The notes under the pieces were generated by a model that saw nothing but the letters and a program-made list of their open reading frames with translations, was not told the origin of the DNA and ran no database searches. From Dysgonomonas mossii DSM 22836 (GTDB lineage Bacteria > Bacteroidota > Bacteroidia > Bacteroidales > Dysgonomonadaceae): a stretch of DNA of 64,000 bases. Positions 18,110 through 64,000 of the stretch are shown here, piece by piece (positions within the stretch are counted from its first letter, which is position 1; each line of letters begins with the position of its first letter). Made by a program: the position numbers and the translations under genes. The DNA is taken from positions 1 through 64,000 of the forward strand of contig NZ_GL892005.1 in NCBI RefSeq assembly GCF_000213575.1, written 5' to 3'.

Positions 18110-18743
18110 TTATTTATCTTTCCTTCTTATTTTTTTCTTTTTAAAAATTCCATTATCCATATTATCCATTCGTTCGTTTAACTTTTCAATCATTTCGTCA
18201 AGAAAGAGGGTGCGGCTTCCGACACGTCGACGGATGGCCCTGAATGTATCATAACAATCTTTTACTTCAAAGGAGAATAGCTGACAGAGGATTTCAACCA
18301 ATAAATTAATGTCAATATCGCCATTCTCAAATTTCTTAGTTTCCAAGGCTCCATATGCAAATTCTACTAAATCGGCTGCTGTTCCGGTCCAATGAAGGTC
18401 TTGTTCTGATTTCTTTTCTTTTTGATTTCCTTTATTACTATTATTCTGTAATTGCCATTGTAAGATTTTAAGTTCTATATCAATAAGAGAGATTGCCTTG
18501 ATTGTATATTTTAAGGCATTTTTTTTCCTCCTTATCGGATAAGCCGTCTCGTATTCCGACAAGTTCCAAACGTACAAAACCAAGATGGTAATAGAGTTTT
18601 GTGATGTTTGATTCAATTTGTAGTCTGTCTAATAACTTTAGTGCAAATTCGTCATAGGCTTCTTCAAGTTTTGTTAGAAAATTGTTACTTTCATCTTGTT
18701 TAGATAAGATAGAAAATAATTTCAAATTCATTAAATTTTTCAT
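18110..18743 (-). pseudogene. rteC: rteC, regulatory gene split by a frameshift
   Basis: Two overlapping minus-strand frames join into one RteC-like protein: the N-terminal part from 18743 (MKNLMNLKLFSIL) and the C-terminal part ending at 18110, which holds the RteC signature LHWTGTAADLVEFAY and a final RTLFLDEMIEKLNERM. The break is at a run of eight A on the coding strand (18519-18526); seven A would give one frame of about 210 residues, close to CTnDOT RteC. RteC regulates excision genes in CTnDOT. The break may be a true mutation, a sequencing error, or a slippage site. The second frame alone can start only inside the N-terminal part. Confidence 0.75.
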
Positions 18744-47765: not shown

Positions 47766-50700
47766 TTATATTTTTATACCTCTTGATTTATTTTGATTCC
47801 CAGTATCAGGCTTTGCCATAATTATCCTATCAGGATTAGCATCTATTATATCTTTGATAGATAATATTTTTCCTGAATGTCTATCAGGTTCTTCACTATT
47901 CATTTTTAAAGCAGACAATTCTAGTTTCCTTTCAGGGATTGTTGTATTGGTTATTAATTCCTGATTCCTATTCTCCAAGCTTAAATTAATCTGCCTGCTC
48001 AATGAATCAAGTTGCGATTTCAAGTCCTTCAATTCTGGCTCTTTCTTCCAAGTTGCCATCATCACCTCTTTCAATACAGGTAAATCCTTTTCCAATTTTT
48101 GATTGTCCGATTGGTATTTCTCAATCAAAGCAGGTATTCGATCCAAAGCTTTCAGGAAGTTGGTTGAAGCCAATATCGGATCAGTAGCAATATGCCCATT
48201 GTTGTACGAATACTTGATATTTCCCTCTCCCTCGATAAAGAAGCGGTTATCCTTAAACATCGAGCCTTCCTTCTGGCTATCCTCCGTTTTGACAAGTATT
48301 TTAAAGTCATACAATTCTCCGATTTTAAAGTATTCGCCATTGGTTCGGGCATTATTGGCCAGTTGATTGAGTTTATCTCCGATAGCATTCAGATCAGTAG
48401 TGTTCAGATTATCCAATTTTATCGGATTGAGTTTATTGCCCTCCTTGTCCATCTGTACCTTTTCATTGAATTGTTTCAGGTCTTTTGTCATCCTTGCTAC
48501 CATTTCAGAGTTACTGTCTACTGTACGGGTAATATCCTCAAACTTATAAATAGCCGAAGACTTGCTGCGGTTAAATGCCTGCCGTTCGCTTTCCAACGAT
48601 GCTATTTTCTTTTCCAACTTGGCTTTTTCCAACAGGTCAGTATTACCTGATAATACAGCCACATACTCCGAAAAGTTCATACCCGAACCTTCGTCCAAAC
48701 TACCTTCGTCAATGGTACGGGTAGCCATATTGTTTGTCTTTAGCTGATTGATAAACAACTGTTTGTTTTGTAATAGATTGAACTTATATGAATCGAGGCT
48801 TTTTTCAACCGCATAAATCAATACATCCACTTTATTATCTGCATACAGCTTGGCTATCTCATTACCTTTACGAATAGCCCGTCCATCCCGTTGATTGAGG
48901 TCAGACGGTCTCCACGGCGTATCTAAATGATGGATTGCGACAGCCCGCCTTTGTGCATTCACTCCCGTTCCCAGCATAGAGGTAGAGCCAAACAATACCC
49001 TGATACGTCCTGCGTTCATCGCTTCTATCATCGTTTTTCTGGCATTATCTGTCTTAGCTTCCTGTATAAAGCGTATCTCATGGGCAGGAATTTTGTGATC
49101 CTCAATGAGCTTGCGTTTTATCTCTGAATATGGATTCCATTCATTGGGCTTATAGGTCCCTAAATCAGAGAATACAAACTGTGTCCCTTTTTCTTTTGCG
49201 TATTTATTATAATACTCCGCTATCTTAGCTGCACAATGGGATGCTTTATTATCGACATGGTCCCCATAAGACATATCTATCATACGCATATCTAACGACA
49301 TCTTTCGGGCATAATCTGTTGCTATCAACATTTTTGCCTTTTCTTCTTTTTCAGATAGAGGTTGCCTACCTAGTATCGTAGCGTCTCCTGTTTCAGCAAA
49401 GCGCATCAGTTTCTCTATAAAGATTTCCTGTTGTGGTGTAGGAGGAATATTATACAATACTTCATTCTTTTCGGGTCTGTCTATCCCTATATCCCTTGCT
49501 GTACGGAAGTCTGTTATCTCCGAATAGAAGGATGCCAGTTCAGGCACTTTAATAAAATACCGGAATCGTTCTTTCTGTACTATCTGGTTGGTAACAGAAA
49601 ACTCATAGTCCGTTGTTTTCTTGGCAAAGACAGCTGCCCATGCATCAAAGGAATTGATGCCCTGCTTTTCCAGTTCCTTTGGACGCAGGTATTTGAAAAG
49701 AAGATATAATTCCGTTAAGGAGTTTGATATTGTTGTTCCCGATAAAAATGTTGCTCCTAAATCTTTATCCCTTCTTTCCTGTATGGTACGGATAGCAAAG
49801 AGCATATTCATGGCCCGCTGGCTTCCTTCGGGATTGCCTAATCCTGCTACACGGTCATGCCTTGTGGTAAAGGTGAGGTTCTTGAACTGGTGGCTTTCAT
49901 CTATAAAGAGATGGTCTATACCCATCATCTTAAAGTCTACGACATCATCGGTCCTGTCTTTAATCTGTTCGGCCAGGTTGCTTAGCTTTACTTCCAGATT
50001 GGCCTTTCGTTTTTCCAATCCCCGGAGCATCATTTTGGATATATCTTTTCCCTGACTACGTAATACATTCAGGTTTTCTTCTACCGAATCCAGCTCTGCC
50101 TGAAATATCTCCTGCTGCATTTCCGGTGATTGGGGTATCTTTCCGAACTGGTCATGGGTAAGGATAACTGCATCCCAAGAGTTATTCTTTATATCATTGA
50201 ATATCTTTACCCTTTTCTGTGGAGTAAAGTCTTCTTTCCCGGGATAGAGTATCTTAGCATTGGGATATGCTGTGCGGAAGGTAGAAGCTATTTCATGTAC
50301 ATTGGCTTTCAATCCTATAATCATGGGTTTATTAGCCTGTCCTAATCGCTTCATCTCATAAGCAGCTGTACACATGATGAGTGTTTTTCCTGCACCAACC
50401 TCGTGGTCACAGATTCCTCCTCCGTTTTGCTTGAGCATCCATACACAATCCTTTTGGGACTGGTATAGGTCAGGAATACCCAAGCCCTTCAAATCCAGCC
50501 CGGGAAAGGTTTGGTGTGAACCTTCATATTGGGGACGTACAAAGCAGTTGAACTTGCGGTTATAGGAATCAGCCAGTTTATTTTTAAATTCGGGTGATTG
50601 CTGGTCTAGCCAGTCGGTGAAGCCGTTGCGGATTTCATCGATCTTGGTATTGGCCATCTGTATGGCTTGCCCGTCCGGCACTTTTACATCTTTATCTTCT

Positions 50701-53360
50701 CCCGTATCGGGGTCCGTAACTTTGATTGTTTTAGTAATATTAGGTGTTGTATTGAGCAGGGCGTGCGTTAAGAGATGAATACCTGTATATAACCTGTTCT
50801 CACTCTGTACGGCAAACTTTTCATTGATAATCATATTACTCCTGTCCGCTTTGACAGTAAAGTCATCACGGGAAGCATAATAGGATATATTGACATCCGT
50901 TTCAAAGAGTTTACCCATATAGTCTTCATAGACTCCCGTATCAATCCAACGCTCCCCGAAATTGAAGTCCAGTTCTTCAAAACGTATCGGTTGCGGTATA
51001 GCTTCCTGTAATGCTTTTAGTGATGTTTGTGAAGGAATATCATCGGGATGATTTTGCAGATAGTGTTCAATGGCTTCTGATTTTTCTATAACATTGCCTG
51101 CAATAAACCTGTCGCTGACTTCATAATTTTGAACTAAGGGATTAAAATAGATACGTCCTTGCAAGTCTGAAACGATTTCTTCCTGTTGTTTTCCATCCAT
51201 CAGGGATAGCATATAATCGATATCCACTTCCCCATACTTATTCAAAGAAGCTATCAGGGCTTCATCTGAAGTGTCGGCAACAGTAATTTCATTGGGATTG
51301 AAGGCCACAGGCATAGAAAAGATATCGGCTTTAATGAAGGCCCCTCCAACCTCCCCAAAGGGGAGGCTCTGTTTCCCCACTTCGGGGGAGTAGGGGGCGC
51401 GTCTTTCTAATGATAGTATCTCCCTGCCTCCGGCATCCATCTTGATAACATCGAGGTTCTTCTTATCATTGAGATGCCCATAACGGCGTACAAAAGAATC
51501 ATAGTACAGGTTCAGGTTGCCACGCAGAGAAGCGTGTTCGGTCAGATGCTCGGCTTCATGATTGTATAGTTTATGATAAGTATCGCGTATCTCTATATAG
51601 CGACTAATCTTAGTTCGTTGGTCAAATGCAACATCCAGTGCCTGAAACTCGGCATCGTCCCGGTAGCGTTCTTTTAAGAAGCCTACTTGTCCATTATCTT
51701 CAACCAGAGAGCCTCTTTTGTGGAACTCAAAAAGTTCGCCCGAATAAGGACGAGGTTCAAAAGAGCGTTTGCGTTCTTCCTGCCGTTTTTGTTCTTGTCG
51801 AAGCCTTTCCTGCTGTTCGGCTATTCGTGCATCGGCTATGGGATAAAGCCCCTCCTGACCTCCCCGAGGGGGAGGAGCAGAATTTCCCTTTGGTGGATTC
51901 TGGGAATTTTCTTTGGAAAACATACTAAGCTGTACAGGTTTTCCTTTCGATACAGGTTTCTTTCTGTTTCTGACAGGTTTTACCTGTGTCCGTTCTTCCT
52001 GTGTAAAACCGAATAAATCATATAAGGAAATAACCGGATCGGAAACATTGACTTCCAATGCCTGATAGCTCGTTTTCTCTTTTTTTACATCTGTTTCGAT
52101 ACCTAAATCTTCAGGGCTGGGTTGCTCATCCCATAATTGCCGTTCTTTTTCTGCGGTATATGCTCCGAACTCCCTTATATCTTCTGCATTGGGCAGGTTA
52201 TTCTTAACTGCATGAGTATTGTATAAATCAAGATTGAGGTTATCTCTCAAATCGGCATTCAGCATTTTTTGCATAGTTTCGGCTATACCGTCCATTCCTC
52301 CTTCATGGATAAATACCTGTGCCGGTTTCCCATATGGGTCGGTATCTATAAATGCTTTTGTTTGTACTACCCGAACATGATTATAGAAGTAATCGTTGTT
52401 GTATATACCGGTTATTGGTAATGGTGTACTTCGGACAAATAATTTTTCTCCGAAATTCAATTCTTCTTTAGCTGTATTCTTTTGCAATAAAATCAGGTCA
52501 CTTCCAACTTCTGTTCCCGCATAATCGGTAAAGAGGTTATTGGGCAGACGTATAGCTGATACAAGGTTTGTATTTTCCATCAACCACTTGCGTACTGGCT
52601 CGTTATTGGGAGAATTCATTACTCCCTGAGAGGTGATAAATGCCATAATACCACCTTCCCGCAACGATTCCACTCCTTTTACAAAGAAATAATTGTGTAT
52701 AGCTCTGGTAGAATCACGATGCAGTGCATCCTGTTTCATAAAGCTGGCATCAAAAACACTCATATCTCCGAATGGAATATTGGAGGAAACTACATCGAAG
52801 TAGTTATTGTATCTGCTCTCGATAGTTTCAAAGCCTTCAATCTTTACTTTGTCTTCCGGTTGGAGATGCGATAGAAGTTTTCCGGTCAGCAGGTCTTTTT
52901 CAAAACAGAATTTCTCCGTATCATCATTAGAAAATGCTTTTGGAAACTCGCCCATTCCGGCAGAAGGATCAAGAAAACGGTTTACTTCTATCCCTGCATC
53001 TTTTAGTGTACCGGCTATTGTTTGTACTACTTCGGGAGGTGTATAGAATGCAGTAAGCACCGAATTCTTGATGCTATTGAAGTATTGCTTATATTCCTTT
53101 TCTGATGAGGCGTTATCCCTGATAACCCGGTGTAGTTCAGCAACCATTGGGAACAGTTCCAGTTCTGATTTTGCCCATGCAGAAGTATCAGCTAGAGAGT
53201 TTGCAGGATTGAGGACACATTTAAGTCCTCCGAATCCCGAATAGCCCTGCATTATTGCTCTTTCCTCATCGGTAGCTGTCCTATGCTCTCTTTCGATAGC
53301 AAAGACAGTACGGATGGCTTCGATATTGGCACGAAGGTGAGTCTTCTTATTATAACTCAT
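47766..53360 (-). CDS. ICE methylase-helicase (N6 DNA methylase plus SNF2-like)
   Basis: About 1864 residues. The frame opens at 53381, but the ATG at 53360 gives the family-typical [20 protein letters not shown]. An N-terminal N6 methylase domain has motif I DPSAGMGE (about 131) and NIPFG (about 200); a SNF2-type helicase has GAGKT (about 990), DESH (about 1153) and GTGVNAQRR with the arginine motif QRDGRAIR near 1510. It matches the large BmhA-like proteins of Bacteroides ICEs, of uncertain role (maintenance, defence evasion). Two Pro/Gly-rich inserts encoded by a palindromic repeat interrupt the middle region. Its start overlaps the DUF1896 gene end by 11 bases. Confidence 0.88.
51340..51400. 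repeat. Palindromic repeat within the methylase-helicase, copy A
   Basis: GCCCCTCC, two bases, then CCTCCCC-AAA-GGGGAGG (51350-51366), followed by a second G/C palindromic part (CCCCACTTCGGGGG). It is much more G+C-rich than its surroundings and is read in frame as an insert around [19 protein letters not shown]. Confidence 0.65.
51847..51880. repeat. Palindromic repeat within the methylase-helicase, copy B
   Basis: GCCCCTCC, three bases, then CCTCCCC-GAG-GGGGAGG (51859-51875): same arms and order as copy A. In frame it encodes the insert around [13 protein letters not shown]. These two copies are the only ones noticed in the window. Confidence 0.65.
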
Positions 53361-53799
53361 TTTCTTCCAGCCATAAGTCAATAAATCCTGTTAATTCAGT
53401 ATAGAGTTCATCATATTCGGGAGAATAAGCGAACTCATCGGAGATAGGATATTGTAGGAACAGGAACTCACATTGTGATAGAATACATATGGCATAATCT
53501 TTTGCCTCGCTTTGCGGAACAATATCGGAGAACTCATTCCACAATACATTGACAATAGTATCATGCTTGGAGAATAGTAGTCCTTTGAACAATGTCAGAT
53601 TTGCCAGTTCTTCAGCTTCGGCCTGCGATAGTCTTTCTTTTATCGCATTGGAATAGGCTTCGGATGCTTCATCAGCTCTGGTTTTGATAAATTCTGTATC
53701 GGATGCCAGATGCGGATGACATTCTTTGAGATAGGAAAGAAGAGTTAATCTGTAATAGGATAACTCCATGGTGTTATTCTGATTCTTATTCTGTATCAT
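53350..53799 (-). CDS. DUF1896 protein
   Basis: 149 residues (139 if the second ATG at 53769, giving [14 protein letters not shown], is used, which better fits the family). It matches DUF1896 ([53 protein letters not shown]), a protein of unknown function always found next to the methylase-helicase in these ICEs. Overlap with the methylase-helicase start points to joint expression. Confidence 0.85.
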
Positions 53800-53898
53800 A
53801 ATTATATTTTTTTGATTGTTGGAGAATTGGAATTATGCCTACCTTTGTTTTATTCAGGTTATTTACTCCGTTTTCGGATATATGTCGGGAGGCATATC

Positions 53899-53957
53899 GG
53901 GTTAGACCGGATAGCTTGGATAATTAGCTAGGCACTTGGGATGGATACCCAAGTGCC
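53899..53957 (-). promoter_or_regulatory. Leader of DUF1896/methylase-helicase: hairpin and ICE motif
   Basis: In gene sense: a perfect 10-bp hairpin GGCACTTGGG/CCCAAGTGCC (53931-53957), then GCTAATTATCCAA (53916-53928), then GTCTAACCC (53899-53907). The hairpin lies after the topB stop and may weaken read-through. The motif order is that of the traE leader. Confidence 0.55.
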
Positions 53958-53987
53958 GTTTGTTTGGAGGGAGTCACAGGCCCTTTG

Positions 53988-56123
53988 TTACTGCTTTTTC
54001 TTCGATTTATTACTTCTTTGCTTATTGTCAGCAAAGATGAATTTTACATTATACTCTTCATCTAATACCAAAGAAGCATCGAAGTCTTTCCCCGCCTTGC
54101 TTTTGAACCCTTTTATCGGTCCAATCTTTTGACCTTTACATAATTCGGTAACCTGAGTATCATTCAGTGTTTTCCCCGATTTGTTCCTGAAAAGTACAAA
54201 ATCGCAGTTTTCATTCTTGCATCGGGCAACCATCGGATAGATTCGGATATTTCCTTCTTTACATTTCGGGCAGGATATTTCCGATTGCTTTTCCCGGAAT
54301 ACAATATTGGAGGATAACAATTCTCCCGTTACCTGCGAGGTATAGACACCAATGCTCTTCATAAAAGTATCTGCATCAAACTCGCCTCTTTCTATTTTAG
54401 CCAGTGTTTCCTCCCACATCCCTGTCATTTCCACATCGGCTATTTTCATCGATTTGACAATCCCATAGATAGCCAGTCCTTTCTCTGTCGGCATAAGGGA
54501 TTTTTCTTTTCGGAAGATATATCCTCTTGTTATCAGTGTTTCGATGATAGATGCACGGGTAGCAGGTGTTCCCAAACCACAATCCTTCATGGATTTTCGT
54601 TGTGCCTCATCATCCAGCTCTTTTCCTGCATTTTCCATTGCCGTCAATAAGGAACTTTCGGTATATAGCTGTTTCGGCTTGGTTTGTTTCTCAATCAATA
54701 CACTTGACGTAGCCAGTATGTTATCTCCTTCATTAAATGCAGGTAAACGGACAGAAGTGTTTTCTTCTGAATCTGTTTGCTTTTCTCCGTTATCCTTTGC
54801 CGGTTGTTCGGAAAGAATAGCACGCCATCCGGCTTTAATAATCACCGAGCCTTTGGCTTCGAAATCCAAGTTGTTTGATGTGAATATAATTCTTACCTGT
54901 TCCTTACTGCATTTTGGAGAAATGGCTTCCAGCATACGTCCTGCAATCAGGTCATATATTTTACGTTCATCCTTTACTATATCATGGGCATAGGTTTCTG
55001 TGATAAGCAGGGCATGATGATCTGTTACTTTCTTATCATTGACTCCCTGTTTATTCAGGTTGCCTTTTTGCAGTTCTGTTGCATAGGTTACAAATAAAGG
55101 ATGTATTTTCAGGCATCGAAGTAACTCGGGTATTTGCTCAAATACATCTTCAGAGATATAACGGCTTCCTGTTCGGGGATAAGTAATCAGTTTCTTTTCA
55201 TAAAGAGTCTGAGCCAGACTTAGTGTTTTGTCTGCCGAGAAACCATATAATTGGTTGGCTTTCTTTTGTAAGCCTGTCAGGTCGAAGAACAGGGGAGCTT
55301 CTTCTGTTACATTCTTTCGTTCAACCGATTTTACCTCAGCCTGTGGATTACTCTTCAATAATTCATAGAGCTGGTCGGCATCTTTTTTCTTGTCAAATTT
55401 ATCTTTGGAATAGGCTTTAAATGTGATATTGTCTTTCTCTATTCCTAATGCCAGTTGCCAGTAGGTCTGAGGCACGAATTGTTTGTTTTCCTTATAGCGG
55501 GAACATATCATGGCTAATGTTGGTGCCTGTACCCGCCCCAGTGAATAGATACCTTCTCCGACAGTAATACTTAATGCCTGGCTGGCATTGATGCCAACAA
55601 GCCAATCGGCTTCACTCCGAGATTTGGCTGCTTTGTACAAATTATCATAATCAGTTCCGGTTTTCAGATTCTTTAATCCTTCACGAATAGCCTCTTCAGT
55701 CAAAGAACTTATCCATAAACGGTCAAAAGGTTTGGTTGATCCTAAGTAAGAATAGATGAGCCTAAAGATAAGCTCCCCTTCACGTCCGGCGTCAGTGGCG
55801 ACGATTATCTTATCGCATTCATCAAAGACATTCTTTACAATTTTAAGTTGCTTTAATGCACCGGGATCGGCTTTATAGCCTTTTTCTCCTTTTACCTGAC
55901 GGGGTTGGAGGGTAAATGTTTCGGGAATAATCGGAAGATTCTCCCTTTTGAATCCTTTGAATCCGTAACCTTCGGGCATGGATAGTCCTACGAGATGTCC
56001 CAATGCCCATGTTACAAGATAGCCGTTACCATACAAGTAACCGTCTTTTTTTTCGTTTGCCCCAACGATAGCCGCTATTTCACGGGCTACGCTTGGTTTT
56101 TCTGCTATTATAGCTGTTTTCAT
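53988..56123 (-). CDS. topB: DNA topoisomerase III
   Basis: 711 residues of type IA topoisomerase: Toprim start AIIAEKPSVAREIA (about 3-16), DAGREGE (about 104), the catalytic Tyr in ITYPRTGSRY (about 314), and a C-terminal zinc-ribbon-like part CPKC...CKNENC (about 617-645), with a last domain like the C-terminal repeats in DUF3945 proteins (GFKSKAGKDFDASLVLDEEY). It relaxes and decatenates DNA and is a standard part of the ICE maintenance block. The gene is preceded by a leader with the recurring motif. Confidence 0.92.
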   Translation of the reverse strand: MKTAIIAEKPSVAREIAAIVGANEKKDGYLYGNGYLVTWALGHLVGLSMPEGYGFKGFKRENLPIIPETFTLQPRQVKGEKGYKADPGALKQLKIVKNVFDECDKIIVATDAGREGELIFRLIYSYLGSTKPFDRLWISSLTEEAIREGLKNLKTGTDYDNLYKAAKSRSEADWLVGINASQALSITVGEGIYSLGRVQAPTLAMICSRYKENKQFVPQTYWQLALGIEKDNITFKAYSKDKFDKKKDADQLYELLKSNPQAEVKSVERKNVTEEAPLFFDLTGLQKKANQLYGFSADKTLSLAQTLYEKKLITYPRTGSRYISEDVFEQIPELLRCLKIHPLFVTYATELQKGNLNKQGVNDKKVTDHHALLITETYAHDIVKDERKIYDLIAGRMLEAISPKCSKEQVRIIFTSNNLDFEAKGSVIIKAGWRAILSEQPAKDNGEKQTDSEENTSVRLPAFNEGDNILATSSVLIEKQTKPKQLYTESSLLTAMENAGKELDDEAQRKSMKDCGLGTPATRASIIETLITRGYIFRKEKSLMPTEKGLAIYGIVKSMKIADVEMTGMWEETLAKIERGEFDADTFMKSIGVYTSQVTGELLSSNIVFREKQSEISCPKCKEGNIRIYPMVARCKNENCDFVLFRNKSGKTLNDTQVTELCKGQKIGPIKGFKSKAGKDFDASLVLDEEYNVKFIFADNKQRSNKSKKKQ

Positions 56124-56187
56124 ATTTGTTTTTTGTTAGAATGGATAAGTTTTACTGGATAAGATATTTATCGCGACTCGGCATAGT

Positions 56188-56238
56188 TCAAACAGGGTTT
56201 GACTCTGCTCTCGCTGCTCTAAATATTGGATAATTAGC
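56188..56238 (-). promoter_or_regulatory. topB leader with recurring ICE motif and hairpin
   Basis: GCTAATTATCCAA (56226-56238), then GTCAAACCC (56195-56203; one change from GTCTAACCC) within a small hairpin TCAAAC/GTTTGA (56188-56202), about 65 bases before topB. It begins just after the DUF3945 stop. Confidence 0.5.
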
Positions 56239-56253
56239 CTGAAATAGAGGGAA

Positions 56254-57660
56254 CTACATTTTTACTCCTCGTGATTTGGTCTGTTGTTGCTCTTTTTTCT
56301 CTTCCTGCTTCTCCTGTTGTTTTTCAGAAGGCTGAGTTTGTCCCTGTTTGAGAGGTTCTTCATTCTTCTTGGTTGCTTCATTGGTTTTGCCTTCGGAGTT
56401 GACAGCAACTTGAGTCTTACTATTGTTGTCGGGAGTAACTTTTTGTGCTTTATCGGGATTCCATTTGAAAAAATCCAGTTTTTCTTTCTCTGTATTCACT
56501 TTGATATAGGCATTGAAAGTTTCACCTTTTTTATCGAGCATGCCTGTTACATAGATAGTTTTGTTCTCTTTCAGTTTATCCTGTTGTTCCTGAGATAATT
56601 CGACACCCAACAATTTGGTCGGAATACGGAACTTTTTTTCCTGCGGCTGGGACTGGTCCTGTTTATTCGCATTCGATTGCTGTTGGTCTTGGGAGAGTTT
56701 ATTGGCATTGTCGAATTTGAACTCCAGACCTCTGCGGTCGGCATTAATCTGTACGGTGGCATTGAATTCTTTTCCGTTTTTACCTGTCATTCCTCCGATA
56801 TAGACTCCTTTTCCTTCGGCTAAATCTTTTTTTTGCTGTTCGTTCAAAGCAACTCCTTTGATTTCATTGGGTATTTTTATTCTGTCGGCACGGACAGCAA
56901 CCAGTTCATTAGTCATTTTGTCGATAGACACAAAGGCTTTCATCTTCTCGCCTTTGGCGGGTTCTATCTCAACTAACCGTCCAGCATGCCCTGTCTGGCG
57001 AAGATTTTGTTTGTCATCTTCATTCAGGCGTGTTCCGTAAAACGGCCTGTCCAGTTCGGGTTCTTTCCGCAGGGCATGAATGGCCACAGTTAAATTACCT
57101 TCTGCTGTTTCCCGAAGTGAGAGGCGAGCATCGGTTCGGATAGTCATCCCGTCGATTTCAACTTTAATAGGTATGAGTCCGGGAGATTTTTGCCAGTTGA
57201 GCATTTTATCCATGCTCTTGGTCTGCTCCAACATTTCTTTGGTTACACCCAGTTTTTCAAATTGGGACCAGTCAATACGGGATTCATCGATTGCCTGATA
57301 TTGTTTCTTGGCAAATTCTTCGGGTAATACCCTGTGTTCATTTAGGAACTTTTTATTAGAAGGGTTCTCTGGGTCTTTGAGCATTGTTTCTAATACGTTT
57401 ACAACATTTTCAAGTGCATTGAGTGGCACTTTGAAGAAATGGAAATGTGTCGGTTCCTTACATTGACGTAAGAAATTGGACATAAAGTTTTCCAAAGCAT
57501 CGCCGTGCTTATTGATCTTCAGGAATTCAGGTTCATTCTTTTGCTCAGGCTTAACGGTTTTCGGTGTGCCGTCTTCATTTATACCTGAAACAACATTCAG
57601 TTTATTGCTGTCCTTTTCTTTTACCAGCAGGACATCCTGGCTTTTTAGCTTTTCGTTCAT
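56254..57660 (-). CDS. DUF4099/DUF3945 protein
   Basis: 468 residues. The N-terminal part (about 1-190, QDVLLVKEKDSNKLNVVSG) matches DUF4099, the middle matches DUF3945, with three copies of a 50-60-residue repeat (GVALNEQQKKDLAEGKGVYIGGM and GVELSQEQQDKLKENKTIYV type) and a disordered Lys/Gln/Glu-rich tail ending KSRGVKM. The same end (KSRGIKI) is seen in the methylase-helicase. Function is unknown; it is always in this ICE block. The ATG at 57660 is close to a partial copy of the recurring motif (57668-57680). Confidence 0.85.
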   Translation of the reverse strand: MNEKLKSQDVLLVKEKDSNKLNVVSGINEDGTPKTVKPEQKNEPEFLKINKHGDALENFMSNFLRQCKEPTHFHFFKVPLNALENVVNVLETMLKDPENPSNKKFLNEHRVLPEEFAKKQYQAIDESRIDWSQFEKLGVTKEMLEQTKSMDKMLNWQKSPGLIPIKVEIDGMTIRTDARLSLRETAEGNLTVAIHALRKEPELDRPFYGTRLNEDDKQNLRQTGHAGRLVEIEPAKGEKMKAFVSIDKMTNELVAVRADRIKIPNEIKGVALNEQQKKDLAEGKGVYIGGMTGKNGKEFNATVQINADRRGLEFKFDNANKLSQDQQQSNANKQDQSQPQEKKFRIPTKLLGVELSQEQQDKLKENKTIYVTGMLDKKGETFNAYIKVNTEKEKLDFFKWNPDKAQKVTPDNNSKTQVAVNSEGKTNEATKKNEEPLKQGQTQPSEKQQEKQEEKKEQQQTKSRGVKM

Positions 57661-57682: not shown

Positions 57683-57994
57683 TTATTCTTCTGAGGTGTT
57701 TTCTTCCCTGTCTTTATCTATTTCCTGCATATATTTTCGAAGGAATTCTTCGATATCTGACTTATAGTAATAGGTTTTCTGTTCAATCTGTTTGTATTTG
57801 AGCTTACCTTCACTACGGTAGCGTTGGAGGCTTCGTTTGCTTACTTTGAGTTGAAAACAGAGGTCTTGGTTATCAAGCAGTATTTCTCCGCTCAAAACAT
57901 TCTGACGATTGAGCATCTGATCTATCCGCTTTTCCAAACTTTCAATCTTCGCCCACAGCCTGTTCATCCATTGTTCAAACTCTTCATCTGACAT
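57683..57994 (-). CDS. Helix-turn-helix protein (excisionase-like), second copy
   Basis: 103 residues with an HTH_17-type DNA-binding domain (about 40-90: DLCFQLKVSKRSLQRYRSEGK) and an N-terminal coiled coil. Small proteins of this type in ICEs act as excisionases or regulators. It overlaps the previous HTH gene by 11 bases, and is followed 22 bases later by the DUF4099 gene. Paralogue of the upstream gene. Confidence 0.8.
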   Translation of the reverse strand: MSDEEFEQWMNRLWAKIESLEKRIDQMLNRQNVLSGEILLDNQDLCFQLKVSKRSLQRYRSEGKLKYKQIEQKTYYYKSDIEEFLRKYMQEIDKDREENTSEE

Positions 57995-58325
57995 ATTCCA
58001 GATAGGCTTTTCGGAATTCTTGATAGGACTTGATATGTGTAGGGAATATTTTTTCTTTTACAAGTTGTTCTACATCTTCGAATTTGTAGATGCACTTCCC
58101 TTTTTCGATGTAATAGAAAAGCCTTCCTTCTTTACGGATGCGCTGGAGGGTGCGGGAACTGACATCCAGAATATCGCAAATTTCTTCTGATTCCAACCGG
58201 ATAGCGCTCCAATCGGGGTCTTTGTTGTTGGGCGTAGCTTCAATGTTTGTTACAAACCCGGCAATGCGGTCAATCTTCTTTTCCAGTTGTTTAAAGGCAT
58301 CACTCTCGAATGTTATTACTTCCAT
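57984..58325 (-). CDS. Helix-turn-helix protein (excisionase-like), first copy
   Basis: 113 residues with the same HTH_17 pattern (about 45-90: EICDILDVSSRTLQRIRKEGR) and an N-terminal helical part. It opens the minus-strand group of HTH, HTH and DUF4099. In CTnDOT-type elements genes like this are part of the excision/regulation block. It faces the divergent defence operon. Confidence 0.8.
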   Translation of the reverse strand: MEVITFESDAFKQLEKKIDRIAGFVTNIEATPNNKDPDWSAIRLESEEICDILDVSSRTLQRIRKEGRLFYYIEKGKCIYKFEDVEQLVKEKIFPTHIKSYQEFRKAYLEYVR

Positions 58326-58605: not shown

Positions 58606-59463
58606 ATGATTAAATACACTTTTTCAGGACACGATAGCTTCCATTGCAAAGATCTATGGCTGAAAAAAGGCTATGATTTCGTAAATGCAGAAAAAAACTT
58701 CAATGACGACGATGCTGTGGTTGATTTGGGAGTCGGAAAAAACATGGTAACTGCAATAAGATATTGGATAAAAGCCTTTGACGTAGTTGATGATAGTATG
58801 AAAATTACTGAATGGGCTGATAGAATTTTTGCAAATAATGGTTATGATCCTTATATTGAAAACATTGGTACTTTATGGATTTTACACTATAAACTATTAA
58901 AAACAAGATTAGCATCAATTTATCATTTGACATTTTTCGATTTTCAAAAAGAATACAGAGAATTCACATCAGAGCAATTGTTAGGCTTTATTAAAAGAAA
59001 TTGTTCGGAAACAGACTTACTATATCCATTTAATGAAAATACAGTAAAAAGAGATATTAATGTTTTCTTACATAATTATGTAAGACCAATGAATGATGGA
59101 AAATCTATCGAAGATTTTTCTTCTCTATTAATTGATTTAAATTTGATATATGCATCTAGTACGGAAAACCGACGATTTAGGTTTGGTTATAATACTAAAA
59201 GTTATCTTGCTCCTGAAATCGCATTATTTATTATTTTAGATATGTTTGAAGAAGATAAAATAATTGATTTCCATTCTCTATCAAATTTATTTTTTTCACT
59301 CTGCATTACATCTGATGAATTGATGCAAATACTAGAGGATATCAAAGAAAAATATCCAGAAGTTATATTTTCTGATGATTCTGGCATAAAGCAAATTCAA
59401 CTTCGAGCTGCATTTGATAAATGGGAACTTCTTCATGATTATTACAATTTAACAAATAATTAA
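58606..59463 (+). CDS. sspB: SspB-like DUF4007 protein
   Basis: 285 residues. The N-terminus FSGHDSFHCKDLWLKKGYDF and LGVGKNMVTAIRYWIKAF match the DUF4007 family. From memory of the SspABCD-SspE literature, the DUF4007 component (SspB) is a nicking nuclease that makes single-strand phosphorothioate placement possible. No signal peptide, so cytoplasmic. It is directly followed by sspC (stop and start adjoin). The whole operon is clearly more A+T-rich than the transfer genes. The alternative (a BREX component) is less likely as no PglZ is seen. Confidence 0.75.
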   Translation: MIKYTFSGHDSFHCKDLWLKKGYDFVNAEKNFNDDDAVVDLGVGKNMVTAIRYWIKAFDVVDDSMKITEWADRIFANNGYDPYIENIGTLWILHYKLLKTRLASIYHLTFFDFQKEYREFTSEQLLGFIKRNCSETDLLYPFNENTVKRDINVFLHNYVRPMNDGKSIEDFSSLLIDLNLIYASSTENRRFRFGYNTKSYLAPEIALFIILDMFEEDKIIDFHSLSNLFFSLCITSDELMQILEDIKEKYPEVIFSDDSGIKQIQLRAAFDKWELLHDYYNLTNN

Positions 59464-62400
59464 ATGAAATTCACAACATCTATAAATATTGAGAGAGATA
59501 AAGAAAGTGTATTTCACTATATACCAACAAGTAATGGAGAAAATGTTGTTAGGCAAATAGTCAATGACTTTAATTCAGGTATCCATTCTTTTAATATTAT
59601 TGGTTCTTTTGGAACTGGTAAATCTAGCCTTTTGCTAGCTCTACAACATGACTTAAATGCTAAGACTAACTTTCTTATTAAAAACAATGGGCAGTTTAAT
59701 GGATACAAATTATTTGAATTTGTTAATATTGTTGGGGAGTATCAACAATTAAAAGAGTGTCTTAATTCAAAATTAGGACTTGAGAAATATAACAAAAAAA
59801 ACTTCTTTGAGGCTTTTGAATGCTTTTATCAAGATATTCTGAAAGAGGATAAATTTCTTTTTATTCTAATTGATGAATTTGGCAAAATATTAGAACATGC
59901 AGCAAAAAATAATCCTGAATCTGAATTATATTTCTTGCAAGAGTTTGCAGAATATATAAATAATCCCAAAAAGAATATCGTTTTATTGACAACATTGCAT
60001 CAATCATTTAATGCATATTCTAATAGGTTAAGTCAAATACAGAGAAATGAATGGGAAAAAGTGAAAGGGCGATTTAAAGAAGTTGTATTTAATGAACCTA
60101 TTGAACAATTATTGTTTTTGGCCGCCTCAGATATAAACGGAGCAGATGTTTCAAAATTAAATGAGAATCATATTGGTGCTTTATATGAAGAAGCTCTTAA
60201 AGCGAAATTTATTGATGGCAGAATATTTTCAAAAGAACTTGCTACTCAACTTTATCCTCTTGACATTTTTGCCGCAAAGACTCTTACATTAGCGATACAA
60301 AAATATGGACAAAATGAGAGGTCCTTATTTTCATTTTTAGTTTCTTCTGATTTTAAAGACTTTAATACTAGGGGGCAACTATATAGTTTACCTAAAACTT
60401 ATGACTATATTGTTAATAATTTCCATAGTCATATCTACGAAACACATAGTGGGTCTGCAAATTGGACTGCAATACAAGTTGCATTAGAAAGAATTGAAGC
60501 TTTCTTTGAGAATGAGATTCAAACTGTAAGCCAACTAATCAAAACAATAGGTCTTTTAAATATTTTTGCTCCAAAAGGAAGCTCTTTCGATATAAATTTT
60601 CTATCTCAATATGCAAAATTATCATTAGGTATATCAAATGCAAGGAAATTAATAGAAAGGCTAGAAAAAACGAAGATCATAAGATATGCAAAATATAAAT
60701 CACAATATATTCTTTTTGAAGGTACTGACATTGATATTGAAGCTGAACTTATCAAAGCAGGGTCTATTATTCCTAAGTCTGAAGACTTTGTTACAAAATT
60801 AAATAAGCATTTTGATTTTAATATTATTCCAGCTAAGTCTTACCAATATGAGACTGGAGCTCCTCGATACTTTCAATTTATCATTAGCGATATTCCATAT
60901 GAAAAAGAGCCAAAAGGAGATATTGATGGTTATATAAATTTAATTTTTTCCAAAGATTTAAATACCAATGATGTTCAAAATAAATCTCAAGATATTAATT
61001 CTGCTATAATTTATGCTTATTTCAATAACACAGACGCGATACTAAATCAAATATTTGAAATTGATAAATATCTATATGTTTTAGAGAGAGTACTTATTGA
61101 TAGAGAGGATAAGGTTGCTTTTAGAGAATTTGAGAAAGGATTACAACATGAAGAATCTTTATTGAATCAAATAGTTCTAAATGATTTATTCTCTAATGAT
61201 GGAACTGTAGATTGGTATTTTAGTGGAGAGAAACTTGATATTTCAAATAAGACAGTTTTCAATAAGAAAATATCAGAAATATGCAATATTATCTATGATG
61301 CCACACCTGTATTTAAAAATGAATTAGTAAATAAACATAAGGTTAGTGGCGCCATTTCTCTAGCAAGAAATAATTTACTAATTGCTTTGTTAGAAAATAG
61401 TGGCCTCAAAGATCTAGATTTTCCTGATAATAAATTTCCTCCTGAAAAATCTATTTATCTTTCGTTAATAAAGAATATTGGAATACACCGTAATGAAAAC
61501 GAATATTTCTATTTAGCAGCTCCTATAGAACCTTCGTTTATCCGATTATGGCAACTATGTGAATCTTTTTTAGAAAGTGCGATAGAAAAAAAACGTAATT
61601 TAAAAGATTTGATCAATCTACTTCAGGATAAACCGTTTAAATTAAAACAAGGGTTAATTGATTTTTGGATCCCAATTTTCTTAATAATCAAAAAGGAAGA
61701 TTATGCTTTATATAGTAACGAGACTTATATTCCTAATCTTAATAAAGAAGTATTGGATCTGCTACAAAGGAATCCATCTGATTTTCAGATTAGGACATTC
61801 GCTGTTGAAGGAATTAGACTAGATTTGTTTAATAAATATAGAGAAGCGATTAATTTAAAAAGGGAAGATAAAATAGAAGGTTCTTCTTTTATTGAAACAA
61901 TCAAGCCATTTCTTACATTCTATAACCGTTCTCTAAATGAATATGCAAGGAATACGCATAAGTTGCAAAAGCAATCTATAGACTTTAGAGATGTTTTAGC
62001 TAATGCTACCGATCCCGAAAAAACATTTTTTGAAGATCTTCCAAGAGTACTTGGCTATAAAGACATAGATCTAATAGACAACCCTGATTATTTACATAAC
62101 TTTGTAGACTCTCTTCAAAATTCTATTAGAGAATTAAGAACATGTTATTCAGAATTATTAAACAGAATAGAATCATACTTGTTGAAATCCTTAGGCATAA
62201 AAGAGAAGGATTTTGAGCTATACAAAAAAAATATCGAAAAGAGATATCAAAACGTAAAAGAATATCTTTTACCTACAAGACAAAAAGCATTTTATTCCAG
62301 GGTAATGGCTCCTTTAAAGGATCGTTCAGCATGGCTTAATTCTATATCATATGTAATAATAAATAAATCATTAGAAAATTTACTTGATAATGAGGAAGAG

Positions 62401-62673
62401 TATTTATTAGAAAGGCTTACATATTCTTTTTCAGAATTATCAGACTTTGTCGACTTACATAAAAACGCAAATACTGTAGACAGCTTAGCACTCAAAGTCG
62501 ATATTACAACCTTAAATAAAGGAAAAAGTACCAAACAAATAATTTTACCTGATAATAAAAAAGAAGAAAGTCAAGAATTAGAAGAATTATTAAAGAAATA
62601 TTTATCTGATGATGACAATGTAAATATATATACACTTTGTCAGATACTAAACAATAAATTAAAGAATGAGTAA
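59464..62673 (+). CDS. sspC: SspC-like P-loop ATPase
   Basis: 1069 residues. Walker A GSFGTGKSS is at about 47-55 and Walker B with FLFILIDEFGK at about 130-140, close to the N-terminus; the rest is a long helical region without a known catalytic motif. It fits the large ATPase of the Ssp system, which powers modification, and is also distantly like BrxC-type ATPases. It begins right after the sspB stop and overlaps sspD by eight bases. Only its order and partner genes point to SspC, so the name is inferred. Confidence 0.7.
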   Translation: MKFTTSINIERDKESVFHYIPTSNGENVVRQIVNDFNSGIHSFNIIGSFGTGKSSLLLALQHDLNAKTNFLIKNNGQFNGYKLFEFVNIVGEYQQLKECLNSKLGLEKYNKKNFFEAFECFYQDILKEDKFLFILIDEFGKILEHAAKNNPESELYFLQEFAEYINNPKKNIVLLTTLHQSFNAYSNRLSQIQRNEWEKVKGRFKEVVFNEPIEQLLFLAASDINGADVSKLNENHIGALYEEALKAKFIDGRIFSKELATQLYPLDIFAAKTLTLAIQKYGQNERSLFSFLVSSDFKDFNTRGQLYSLPKTYDYIVNNFHSHIYETHSGSANWTAIQVALERIEAFFENEIQTVSQLIKTIGLLNIFAPKGSSFDINFLSQYAKLSLGISNARKLIERLEKTKIIRYAKYKSQYILFEGTDIDIEAELIKAGSIIPKSEDFVTKLNKHFDFNIIPAKSYQYETGAPRYFQFIISDIPYEKEPKGDIDGYINLIFSKDLNTNDVQNKSQDINSAIIYAYFNNTDAILNQIFEIDKYLYVLERVLIDREDKVAFREFEKGLQHEESLLNQIVLNDLFSNDGTVDWYFSGEKLDISNKTVFNKKISEICNIIYDATPVFKNELVNKHKVSGAISLARNNLLIALLENSGLKDLDFPDNKFPPEKSIYLSLIKNIGIHRNENEYFYLAAPIEPSFIRLWQLCESFLESAIEKKRNLKDLINLLQDKPFKLKQGLIDFWIPIFLIIKKEDYALYSNETYIPNLNKEVLDLLQRNPSDFQIRTFAVEGIRLDLFNKYREAINLKREDKIEGSSFIETIKPFLTFYNRSLNEYARNTHKLQKQSIDFRDVLANATDPEKTFFEDLPRVLGYKDIDLIDNPDYLHNFVDSLQNSIRELRTCYSELLNRIESYLLKSLGIKEKDFELYKKNIEKRYQNVKEYLLPTRQKAFYSRVMAPLKDRSAWLNSISYVIINKSLENLLDNEEEYLLERLTYSFSELSDFVDLHKNANTVDSLALKVDITTLNKGKSTKQIILPDNKKEESQELEELLKKYLSDDDNVNIYTLCQILNNKLKNE

Positions 62674-63769
62674 AGTTAGACATGTATTAGGTATATCAGG
62701 GGGGAAGGATAGTGCTGCCCTGGCTATATATATGAAGAATAAACACTCTGATATTCCAATTGAATATTATAATTCAGATACTGGTTGTGAACTAGAAGAA
62801 ACAATCGAATTTGTTAAACAATTAAAAGGTTTTTTAGGGCATATTGAAATGCTTGTTGCAGCAAAAGATAGTCCTGAGCCTACTCCTTTTGATCATTTTC
62901 TTAAAGCTAATGGAGGATATCTTCCTTCTCCCCAAGCAAGATGGTGCACTCAGAAAATGAAATTAGCAGAATTTGAGGATTTTGTTAAGGATGATTATGC
63001 AATTTCCTATGTTGGTATTCGAGGAGATGAACAAAGAGAGGGATATGTGTCTACAAAGTCTAATATTCAATCAATCTTTCCTTTTAGGAAGAATATTTGG
63101 AGTTTAGATGTCATTACAAAGGTTTTAAATGATGATAATATCGACCAATTTAGCAAATACTATAAAGAGATTGCTAATAAGAAAACTTTTGATGAGGTAA
63201 GAAATATATTATTGCAGCCTCTAACGAAATCTTTCTTTTATTCCAAAAAACTTAATTATTTACTGGACACAAATATTGTATATTTTAATAAAGCTGTTTT
63301 TGAATGGTTAAAAACTACTGATTATCCTGTAGGTAAATTAGATTCTTTTCCTTTGGTAGAAAATACTGATAATTTAAATGTTGATGACATAAAAAAAATA
63401 TTAATTGATAGTGGTATTGGAATGCCAGCATATTATGATCCTATAATGTTTGAAGTTGACGGAGAGGTTGGCTATTATAATAGAAGCAGATCTGGATGTT
63501 ATTTTTGTTTTTACCAACAAAAGATAGAATGGATTTGGTTATATGAGCAACATCCAAAACTATTTGAACAAGCAATGGAATATGAGAAAAGTGGTTATAC
63601 TTGGATACAAGGGGAACGTTTAAGTGATCTTATTCATCCAGAGAGAATAAGGCAAATAAAATTAGACTTTATTAAACGCTCGAAGCAAATTTCTTCAAAG
63701 AAAAAGGATTCACGCCTTGTAAATATGTTCGAGGATGACAACATAAATTGTGCTAATTGTTTTATCTAA
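62666..63769 (+). CDS. sspD: SspD-like PP-loop sulfur-transfer protein (DndC-like)
   Basis: 367 residues. It has the PP-loop SGGKDS (about 11-16) of the PAPS reductase/ATP pyrophosphatase fold and Cys residues in RWCTQK (about 93), GCYFCF (about 277-280) and the terminal NCANCF, which fit an Fe-S cluster as in DndC/SspD. It is expected to activate and put sulfur onto the DNA backbone. A cysteine desulfurase (SspA) is not in the window, so sulfur may come from a host enzyme. It overlaps sspC by eight bases. Confidence 0.82.
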   Translation: MSKVRHVLGISGGKDSAALAIYMKNKHSDIPIEYYNSDTGCELEETIEFVKQLKGFLGHIEMLVAAKDSPEPTPFDHFLKANGGYLPSPQARWCTQKMKLAEFEDFVKDDYAISYVGIRGDEQREGYVSTKSNIQSIFPFRKNIWSLDVITKVLNDDNIDQFSKYYKEIANKKTFDEVRNILLQPLTKSFFYSKKLNYLLDTNIVYFNKAVFEWLKTTDYPVGKLDSFPLVENTDNLNVDDIKKILIDSGIGMPAYYDPIMFEVDGEVGYYNRSRSGCYFCFYQQKIEWIWLYEQHPKLFEQAMEYEKSGYTWIQGERLSDLIHPERIRQIKLDFIKRSKQISSKKKDSRLVNMFEDDNINCANCFI

Positions 63770-63783
63770 TACTTAAAGTTATT

Positions 63784-64000
63784 ATGTCCGTTATTAATAT
63801 TGAAAGTGCCTTTAATACAGAAAATAGGAGTGTAGATGACTTCTTTAATCAAACAGGTCAAGGATTATATATTCCATTTTACCAACGAGAATATAGTTGG
63901 GATCAAGATAATATAGAACAATTACTAGAAGATATTTCAAAAGGAGTTCTTCGTGTAATTGATGATAAAAGCAGTAATAACAAAGAGATAAGATTTCTTG
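63784..64000 (+). CDS. sspE: SspE-like DUF262 protein, 3' end outside window
   Basis: 72 residues are visible. The signature YIPFYQREYSWDQDNIEQLL (about 27-46) is the N-terminal GmrSD/DUF262 type NTPase motif. In Ssp systems SspE senses phosphorothioation and nicks unmodified DNA with a DUF1524 nuclease domain, which would be beyond the window. It begins 14 bases after the sspD stop. Confidence 0.72.
   Translation, partial: MSVINIESAFNTENRSVDDFFNQTGQGLYIPFYQREYSWDQDNIEQLLEDISKGVLRVIDDKSSNNKEIRFL

What the first reader, a model, noticed from the sequence alone, without database searches (positions are those of the whole stretch)
58606..64000. Ssp-type phosphorothioation defence operon carried on an ICE, without local sspA
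Four adjoining genes (DUF4007, P-loop ATPase, DndC-like PP-loop, DUF262) match the SspB-C-D-E order. The DUF4007 plus DndC-like pair is the diagnostic part. They adjoin the ICE's HTH genes and are very A+T-rich, so they look like a recently acquired cargo. No cysteine desulfurase is in view, so the system may use the host IscS/NifS.
Basis: partly seen in the sequence, partly recalled or inferred. Interest (0 to 1): 0.8.

Follow-up and report, generated by a model that had tools for sequence, protein, structure and literature searches.

The report
Mobile DNA-sulfur phage-defence operon lacking sspA
This Bacteroidales bacterium carries, at the very end of a conjugative element in a lysine-tRNA gene, a known four-gene defence system that puts sulfur on DNA and nicks unmarked phage DNA, but its genome lacks the usual sulfur-donor enzyme, so the sulfur must come from a different housekeeping enzyme or from sulfide.

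Summary
Window 58606-63769 encodes SspB, SspC and SspD. SspE starts at 63784 and runs past the window to contig position 66081, with DUF262 and DUF1524 domains and the published PT-sensing, GTPase and nickase residues. It is an SspBCD-SspE phosphorothioation (PT) defence operon, a known kind.

It is mobile-element cargo. CTnDOT-type tra/mob genes lie on the same contig, and an att core matching the 3' end of tRNA-Lys(CTT) starts 218 bp after sspE. The core occurs four times in the genome; a sister species carries a prophage at that tRNA.

The missing local sspA is not special: 91 of 93 distinct relatives' loci show no cysteine desulfurase in the stretch read, and E. coli 3234/A is a published case.

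In this 99.99%-complete genome the only cysteine desulfurase found is SufS; by score bands 10 of 19 ssp-bearing Bacteroidales genomes have no IscS/NifS-type gene either. In E. coli, SufS did not replace IscS for the related Dnd system. What feeds sulfur to SspD in such hosts is the open, testable question.

Low G+C is common for these operons and does not by itself date acquisition.

The parts
58606..59463 (+). sspB (DUF4007), 285 aa
   Evidence: PF13182 E 1.5e-72; PADLOC SspB 1.1e-93; PDB SspB 6juf/6lb9 E 8.7e-16
59464..62673 (+). sspC (P-loop ATPase), 1069 aa, starts on the base after the sspB stop
   Evidence: PADLOC SspC 1379 bits over 11-1043; best BrxC model 233 bits
62666..63769 (+). 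sspD (PP-loop ATP pyrophosphatase, sulfur insertion), 367 aa, overlaps sspC by 8 bp
   Evidence: PADLOC SspD 8.9e-88; PP-loop SGGxDS and Cys94, 278, 281, 362, 365 at 99-100% in 136 SspD; AlphaFold model mean pLDDT 83 with PP-loop fold
63784..64000 (+). sspE, first 72 codons; the gene continues to contig position C2:66081 (765 aa in all)
   Evidence: GmrSD_N 1.3e-25 and GmrSD_C 9.9e-13; PADLOC SspE 1033 bits; PDB SspE 20yv E 3.9e-96 and 6jiv 1.8e-80
57683..58325 (-). two HTH_17 (perhaps excisionase-like) genes of the element, 57683-57994 and 57984-58325
   Evidence: PF12728 2.1e-9 and 1.3e-7; NCBIfam Xis match for the first, far below its cut-off
47766..57660 (-). element backbone: methylase/helicase 47766-53381, DUF1896 53350-53799, topoisomerase 53988-56123, DUF4099/DUF3945 56254-57660
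   Evidence: Pfam; methylase/helicase, topoisomerase and DUF3945 relatives also precede sspB in L039 and L069
2127..17943 (.). conjugation genes: TraO, DUF4138 (TraN-type), TraM, TraJ, TraG ATPase, relaxase, coupling protein
   Evidence: Pfam
18110..18616 (-). rteC-like regulator of the element
   Evidence: PF09357 1.2e-24

Best explanation
An SspBCD-SspE phosphorothioation (PT) defence operon, the last cargo of a CTnDOT-type integrative conjugative element that ends in an att core derived from tRNA-Lys(CTT). Shown here: gene content, order, open frames, key residues, the element's right end, and no SspA/IscS/NifS-type gene found in the genome. Inferred from studied relatives: SspB, SspC and SspD put a single-strand phosphorothioate into host DNA (5'-CCA-3' in relatives). 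SspE reads that mark through its YQR pocket, hydrolyses GTP through DGQQR and licenses its HNH domain to nick unmarked phage DNA. Inferred from the genome: sulfur for SspD most likely comes from the housekeeping SufS, perhaps through SufE, because no SspA, IscS or NifS was found.
For: Domain and family matches for all four proteins. SspE Y33, Q34, D103-R107 and N675 align with StSspE Y30, Q31, D96-R100 and N676 (counted by hand on the alignment) and are kept in 9 of 9 Bacteroidales SspE; those residues were tested in PMC9646914 (passages). SspD PP-loop and cysteines are kept in 136 sequences. tra/mob genes. The att core CCCCTCCGRRGTCAC occurs 4 times in the genome, 0 in the reversed-pattern control: at the end of tRNA-Lys(CTT), before an integrase gene on C9, at C2:66299 and at C2:83616. 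In sister species G410 the same tRNA and right flank lie on one contig with a prophage between. SufS is the only cysteine desulfurase found; SufE is present.
Against: PT was not measured. In E. coli only IscS, not SufS or CsdA, supported Dnd phosphorothioation (PMC3519819, passages), and in V. cyclitrophicus loss of sspA abolished PT despite a chromosomal iscS (PMC7188994, passages), so a SufS donor is not a safe guess. StSspE K40, whose change to Ala made that enzyme unresponsive to PT and constitutively active, is Asn in all 9 Bacteroidales SspE, so gating may differ. C9 and C2 are not joined in the assembly, so the integrase on C9 is not proven to belong to this element, and no integrase gene lies beside the HTH_17 genes.
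Confidence: 0.85

Rival explanations
1. Same Ssp operon, but SspD takes sulfur from free sulfide (or another carrier) bound to a [4Fe-4S] cluster, as I recall for some PP-loop sulfur transferases, so no dedicated desulfurase is needed in an anaerobe.
For: No class I desulfurase found; SspD keeps five cysteines at 99-100% in 136 sequences; its model aligns with [4Fe-4S] LarE (8cp4, Z 12.2, rmsd 3.2, 145 aligned), TtuA (5mkq, Z 10.9, rmsd 3.2, 150) and NcsA (6scy, Z 10.9, rmsd 3.5, 147), though also, as well or better, with PP-loop enzymes that do not handle sulfur, GMP synthetases on top.
Against: A shared fold shows no chemistry; no cluster or sulfide use was tested; SufS and SufE are present.
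Confidence: 0.15
2. The operon is an unexpressed or inactive passenger, stranded in a host without SspA or IscS.
For: No cognate desulfurase found; the required desulfurase can be specific (PMC7188994, PMC3519819, passages).
Against: All four frames are open with conserved residues; 10 of 19 ssp-bearing Bacteroidales genomes lack an IscS/NifS-type match by score band, so the combination recurs.
Confidence: 0.12
3. A class I desulfurase exists but was missed, in assembly gaps or on a lost plasmid.
For: 28 contigs, and the element's left part is not assembled onto C2.
Against: 99.99% completeness; the same lack, by score band, in 9 other ssp-bearing genomes.
Confidence: 0.05
4. Another system, such as BREX type 4 or Dnd, built on shared parts.
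For: SspB has a marginal BrxP match, SspC weaker BrxC matches and SspD weak DndC matches.
Against: Ssp models win clearly for all four proteins; SspE has DUF1524; the next genes are GH65 and GH97.
Confidence: 0.01

Closest known systems
E. coli 3234/A SspBCDE
   Same: sspB-C-D-E cluster without sspA; its SspE (PDB 20yv) is the best PDB match, E 3.9e-96; the PT-sensing Tyr/Gln and DGQQR motif align.
   Different: Its host IscS supplies sulfur (PMC13251355, passages); here only SufS was found. The Lys at the StSspE K40 position is Asn here.
SspABCD-SspE of Vibrio cyclitrophicus FF75 and Streptomyces yokosukanensis
   Same: Same B, C, D, E families; the Streptomyces SspE structure 6jiv matches at 1.8e-80.
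   Different: V. cyclitrophicus has and needs its own sspA (PMC7188994, passages); none here.
SspABCD-SspFGH
   Same: Same modification module SspBCD.
   Different: SspE follows sspD here; PMC8092258 (passages) describes sspFGH as sharing no homology with SspE. SspFGH was not searched for here.
CTnDOT-type conjugative transposons of Bacteroidales
   Same: TraO, TraM, CtnDOT TraJ, TraG, relaxase, YWFCY coupling protein, RteC.
   Different: No integrase gene beside the HTH_17 genes; sspB-E lie there, up to the att core. That an integrase usually sits there is recalled, not looked up.

Membership tests
SspBCD-SspE PT defence system | SspB with DUF4007 | tested here: met
   PF13182 1.5e-72, PADLOC SspB 1.1e-93
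SspBCD-SspE PT defence system | SspC ATPase adjacent to sspB | tested here: met
   PADLOC SspC 1379 bits
SspBCD-SspE PT defence system | SspD PP-loop ATP pyrophosphatase adjacent to sspC | tested here: met
   PADLOC 8.9e-88; SGGxDS and cysteines kept; PP-loop fold
SspBCD-SspE PT defence system | SspE with DUF262 and DUF1524, PT-sensing Y/Q, DGQQR, nickase Asn | tested here: met
   Pfam, residues
SspBCD-SspE PT defence system | some cysteine desulfurase in the genome | tested here: met
   SufS C6:176117-177226, TIGR01979 573 bits over the cut-off of 475; whether it serves SspD is untested
SspBCD-SspE PT defence system | phosphorothioate in DNA, PT-dependent phage restriction | not testable with these tools
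   needs LC-MS, iodine cleavage and plaque assays
SspABCD subtype with its own sspA (Vibrio type) | sspA adjoining sspBCD | tested here: not met
   no PF00266 hit near; the only one on C2 is at 603 kb and is a glycine C-acetyltransferase
IscS-served SspBCDE (E. coli 3234/A type) | IscS-type (class I) desulfurase elsewhere in the genome | tested here: not met
   the six genome-wide PF00266 matches are SufS and five other enzymes
BREX type 4 | PglZ and BrxL adjoining BrxP/BrxC-like genes | tested here: not met
   adjoining genes are HTH_17 upstream, GH65 and GH97 downstream; the rest of the genome was not searched for PglZ or BrxL
Dnd (DndBCDE) | DndD and DndE next to DndC | tested here: not met
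   SspB and SspC lie there instead
CTnDOT-type ICE | tra, relaxase and coupling protein genes | tested here: met
   Pfam
CTnDOT-type ICE | own integrase and two att ends | tested here: inconclusive
   right end at C2:66299; candidate left end and integrase on C9, not joined to C2

The most novel reading that the evidence does not exclude
In Bacteroidota hosts that have only SufS, DNA backbone phosphorothioation runs without any SspA/DndA/IscS-type desulfurase: SspD is fed by the group II enzyme SufS (with SufE) or directly by sulfide, a route that I did not see demonstrated for PT systems in the passages read, and the roughly 92-residue helical insert found in most Bacteroidota SspD examined may be part of it.
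Probability: 0.55. Interest if true: 0.55.

Novelty: new member of a known kind. Interest (0 to 1): 0.4.

Why it matters
It gives a clean case in which the accepted sulfur donor for PT is absent, so one simple experiment can settle whether SufS or sulfide can serve. PT-seq of one donor found Bacteroidota to be the dominant PT-bearing phylum (PMC11931770, passages), so the answer would bear on much of the gut's PT DNA. It also shows a PT defence module travelling as terminal cargo of a conjugative element in a tRNA-Lys integration site.

Tried and rejected
Insert hypothesis. The window's SspD is about 90 aa longer than the Proteobacterial and Cyanobacterial ones fetched (main insert at residues 142-233). 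I asked whether the insert goes with absence of sspA. It does not: short SspD without a local desulfurase is common (L150, L154, L155, L156, L158, L161, L162, L178-L180, L182, L183, L185, L186), and one long SspD (L169) has a desulfurase about 1 kb downstream on the same strand, another (L168) one about 4.6 kb away on the other strand. Rejected as a strict link.

Low G+C as a sign of recent arrival: weakened, because 58 of 78 relatives' loci with over 3 kb of flank show the same trend and 17 of 78 at least as strongly as here.

The tRNA search in the window and in C2:58001-78000 found nothing, nor did Rfam on the latter; the tRNA-derived att core came from comparison with C9. PDB sequence searches with SspC and SspD found nothing at E 0.001. 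The fold search of SspD barely tested residues after 284, and the insert was not searched alone; I do not claim that it has no known fold. The host genus could not be named with these tools.

Rows dropped before counts: 98 loci (18 from the order search, 80 from genome contigs) were collapsed to 93 by identical SspD DNA; record titles are nearly all Bacteroidota, but four are MAGs labelled Bacilli, Clostridia, Clostridium and Erysipelotrichaceae (L051, L066, L078, L099). Of 22 order genomes with a match, 3 with weak matches only were left out of the desulfurase count. The long/short SspD split leaves out 1 of 136, 109 long and 26 short. 15 of 93 loci lacked 3 kb of flank for the G+C test. The tool kept 80 of 178 genome contigs relatives. 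The structure alignment used the window's SspD and 48 of those 80 loci. Of the downstream gene clusters one representative each was scanned, for 9 clusters.
Full report
What is there. The window is positions 1-64000 of an 804-kb contig (C2) of a 3.95-Mb genome in 28 contigs, 99.99% complete; its relatives place it in the Bacteroidales. At 58606-63769 three abutting or overlapping genes encode SspB, SspC and SspD, and sspE starts at 63784, 14 bases after the sspD stop. Pfam and PADLOC agree: DUF4007 1.5e-72 and SspB 1.1e-93; SspC 1379 bits; SspD 8.9e-88. Past the window, sspE ends at C2:66081, carries GmrSD_N/DUF262 and GmrSD_C/DUF1524 and scores 1033 bits to PADLOC SspE. Its best PDB matches are E. 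coli SspE 20yv (3.9e-96) and Streptomyces SspE 6jiv (1.8e-80).

Is it intact? The PT-sensing residues Y30 and Q31, the GTPase motif D96GQQR100 and the nickase residue N676 of Streptomyces SspE (PMC9646914, passages) align with Y33, Q34, D103-R107 and N675 here (counted by hand on the alignment), and all are kept in the 9 SspE compared, the window's and 8 relatives. K40, whose change to Ala made the Streptomyces enzyme unresponsive to PT and constitutively active, is Asn in all 9. In SspD, the PP-loop SGGxDS and cysteines 94, 278, 281, 362 and 365 are at 99-100% in 136 sequences. An AlphaFold model (mean pLDDT 83) aligns with PP-loop enzymes: GMP synthetases on top (2ywb, Z 13.1, rmsd 4.1, 186 aligned), [4Fe-4S] LarE (8cp4, Z 12.2, rmsd 3.2, 145 aligned) and a PAPS reductase (7rge, Z 12.0, rmsd 3.7, 165 aligned) among them.

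Is it on a mobile element? The same contig carries TraO, DUF4138 (TraN-type), TraM, TraJ, TraG, a relaxase, a YWFCY coupling protein, RteC, topoisomerase and DUF3945/DUF4099 genes. Two other loci, L039 and L069, have relatives of the methylase/helicase, topoisomerase and DUF3945 genes just before sspB, and L038 and L061 have HTH_17- and relaxase-like genes before it. The right end can be placed. A 15-bp core, CCCCTCCGRRGTCAC, occurs exactly four times in the genome, 0 in the reversed-pattern control: as the last 15 bases of tRNA-Lys(CTT) at C9:98995, at C9:99183 before a tyrosine-integrase gene (99459-100682; PF00589 and Arm-DNA-bind_5), at C2:66299, 218 bp after the sspE stop, and at C2:83616. 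All four are on the + strand, and TAAATCRTTACT repeats lie near the C9:99183 copy and both C2 copies. From C2:66472 on, the sequence is collinear at 92% with another species of the genus (G019), which has unrelated genes to the left. No integrase gene lies beside the HTH_17 genes.

The tRNA-Lys hotspot. In the closest relative met, G410, the genes before the tRNA (94%), the tRNA itself (100% over 121 bp) and the right flank of the array (own C2:92934-98000, 93%) lie on one contig in one direction. Between tRNA and flank G410 has about 40 kb with portal, capsid, tape-measure and integrase genes, a prophage. Own C2:83617-83680 matches the right junction there. Own has a further 9.2 kb between that point and the flank which G410 lacks, so the site is not a simple one-for-one exchange. 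Own C9 and C2 thus flank one integration array at tRNA-Lys(CTT), and the ssp operon is the last cargo of the segment that ends at the core at C2:66299. Not shown: the join of C9 to C2, and hence that the C9 integrase is this element's own.

The missing sspA. A genome-wide PF00266 search gives six matches. NCBIfam identifies them as SufS (TIGR01979, 573 bits, cut-off 475), SerC, serine palmitoyltransferase, glycine C-acetyltransferase and two aminotransferases; the gene beside sufS is SufD (one aminotransferase stays below its model cut-off). SufE is present. No SspA, IscS or NifS was found. The same PF00266 search in 19 ssp-bearing Bacteroidales genomes (the window's and the 18 others with strong SspD matches) gives a SufS-level match (470-508 bits) in 18 of 19 and a second band of matches at about 190-300 bits, read as IscS/NifS-type, in 9 of 19; 10 of 19 have none in that band. 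These are score bands: one band member (L046) was checked and is IscS/NifS-type (440 bits, below the equivalog cut-offs); two of the ten (G176, G379) have a match of about 135 bits in a frame of about 500 codons that I did not classify. Among 93 distinct relatives' loci, 2 have a desulfurase in the stretch read (L042, L046), 4 to 8 kb from sspD; only 57 of 93 stretches reach at least 7 kb before and 4 kb after sspD. In contrast all 9 Alphaproteobacterial plasmid loci fetched have a desulfurase gene next to sspB, whereas the Cyanobacterial and Betaproteobacterial ones fetched do not.

What that means. Absence of a local sspA is known: sspBCD is typically a three-gene operon, with IscS able to serve (PMC8092258, passages), and E. 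coli 3234/A sspBCDE is a worked case (PMC13251355, passages). ssp genes in gut Bacteroidales are also known (PMC7464106, passages). But IscS is missing here too. In E. coli, SufS did not support Dnd phosphorothioation (PMC3519819, passages), and in V. cyclitrophicus a chromosomal iscS could not replace sspA (PMC7188994, passages). One comparative paper names SufS among possible stand-ins for DndA, as a suggestion (PMC10853773, passages). A search for papers holding SufS, phosphorothioation and cysteine desulfurase found 10 (listing); in the passages that I read of three of them I saw no demonstration of SufS serving a PT system. If the operon works here, sulfur comes from SufS (perhaps with SufE) or from another route such as sulfide. 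This is inference.

How it most likely works. SspB, SspC and SspD mark host DNA with phosphorothioate; SspE senses the mark, hydrolyses GTP and nicks unmarked phage DNA. This is carried over from the studied relatives because the residues that matter are kept; nothing was measured here.

Neighbours in relatives. In 73 of 93 distinct loci a gene of one cluster, whose scanned representative is PbeA-like (PADLOC PbeA 1104 bits), follows sspD within six genes, in 58 of 93 with two further conserved genes; SspE occurs in 8 of 93. Other modules sit between: GHKL/response-regulator-like, DndB-like, BrxC/D-like ATPase, short DUF262. The window's operon is thus of the minority SspE type.

Verdict. A real, intact-looking, known defence system, correctly spotted; a new member of a known kind. 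The part worth following is the sulfur donor in hosts that have only SufS.

Noticed in passing
L033-L130 (93 distinct SspD loci), genes after sspD: In these relatives SspBCD is usually followed by a gene of a PbeA-like PLD-helicase cluster (73 of 93), often with an SMC-type ATPase and a ~190-aa protein, with swappable modules in between (GHKL/response regulator-like, DndB-like plus a small protein, BrxC/D-like ATPase set, short DUF262 plus kinase-like). One representative per cluster was scanned. It looks like a large set of poorly described PT-linked effectors.
   Followed up: partly
own C9:98936-99009 and C2:66299-83630; G410 C1:98278-139218: tRNA-Lys(CTT) is an integration hotspot: an array with repeated att cores here, a prophage in the sister species at the same site.
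   Followed up: yes
contig C2:66472-83554 (beyond the window): A 17-kb polysaccharide-utilisation locus (GH65 kojibiose hydrolase, GH97; GH31-like and SusE/SusD-like by reading) flanked by copies of the att core, which lie within a 148-bp direct repeat (86%); shared at 92% with G019.
   Followed up: partly
contig C2:about 68670 (L002 about 10673), - strand: In-frame stop codon near the end of the signal-peptide-like start of the GH65 gene; the longest downstream ORF lacks the first 46 positions of the NCBIfam model.
   Followed up: no
window 63910-63912 (SspE residue 43): The lysine whose change makes Streptomyces SspE unresponsive to PT (K40) is asparagine in all 9 Bacteroidales SspE compared.
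   Followed up: partly
window 63089-63364 (SspD residues 142-233): A mostly helical insert of about 92 residues in most Bacteroidota SspD examined, largely absent from the Proteobacterial and Cyanobacterial SspD fetched and from the 9 shorter Bacteroidota SspD L178-L186.
   Followed up: partly
window 18827-47658: The element carries a large glycan-degradation cargo between rteC and the methylase/helicase gene: esterase, glycoside-hydrolase-like and SusC/SusD-like genes by reading; one NCBIfam match to xylanase/feruloyl esterase below cut-off.
   Followed up: no
L144, L145 (IMG/VR contigs): Two viral-collection contigs encode a full-length SspC relative (41%), perhaps a prophage or other element carrying ssp.
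   Followed up: no
L036/L124 (Xylanibacter muris): SspC matches in two pieces, with a separate ORF of about 255 aa for its start, so this copy may be broken or misassembled.
   Followed up: no
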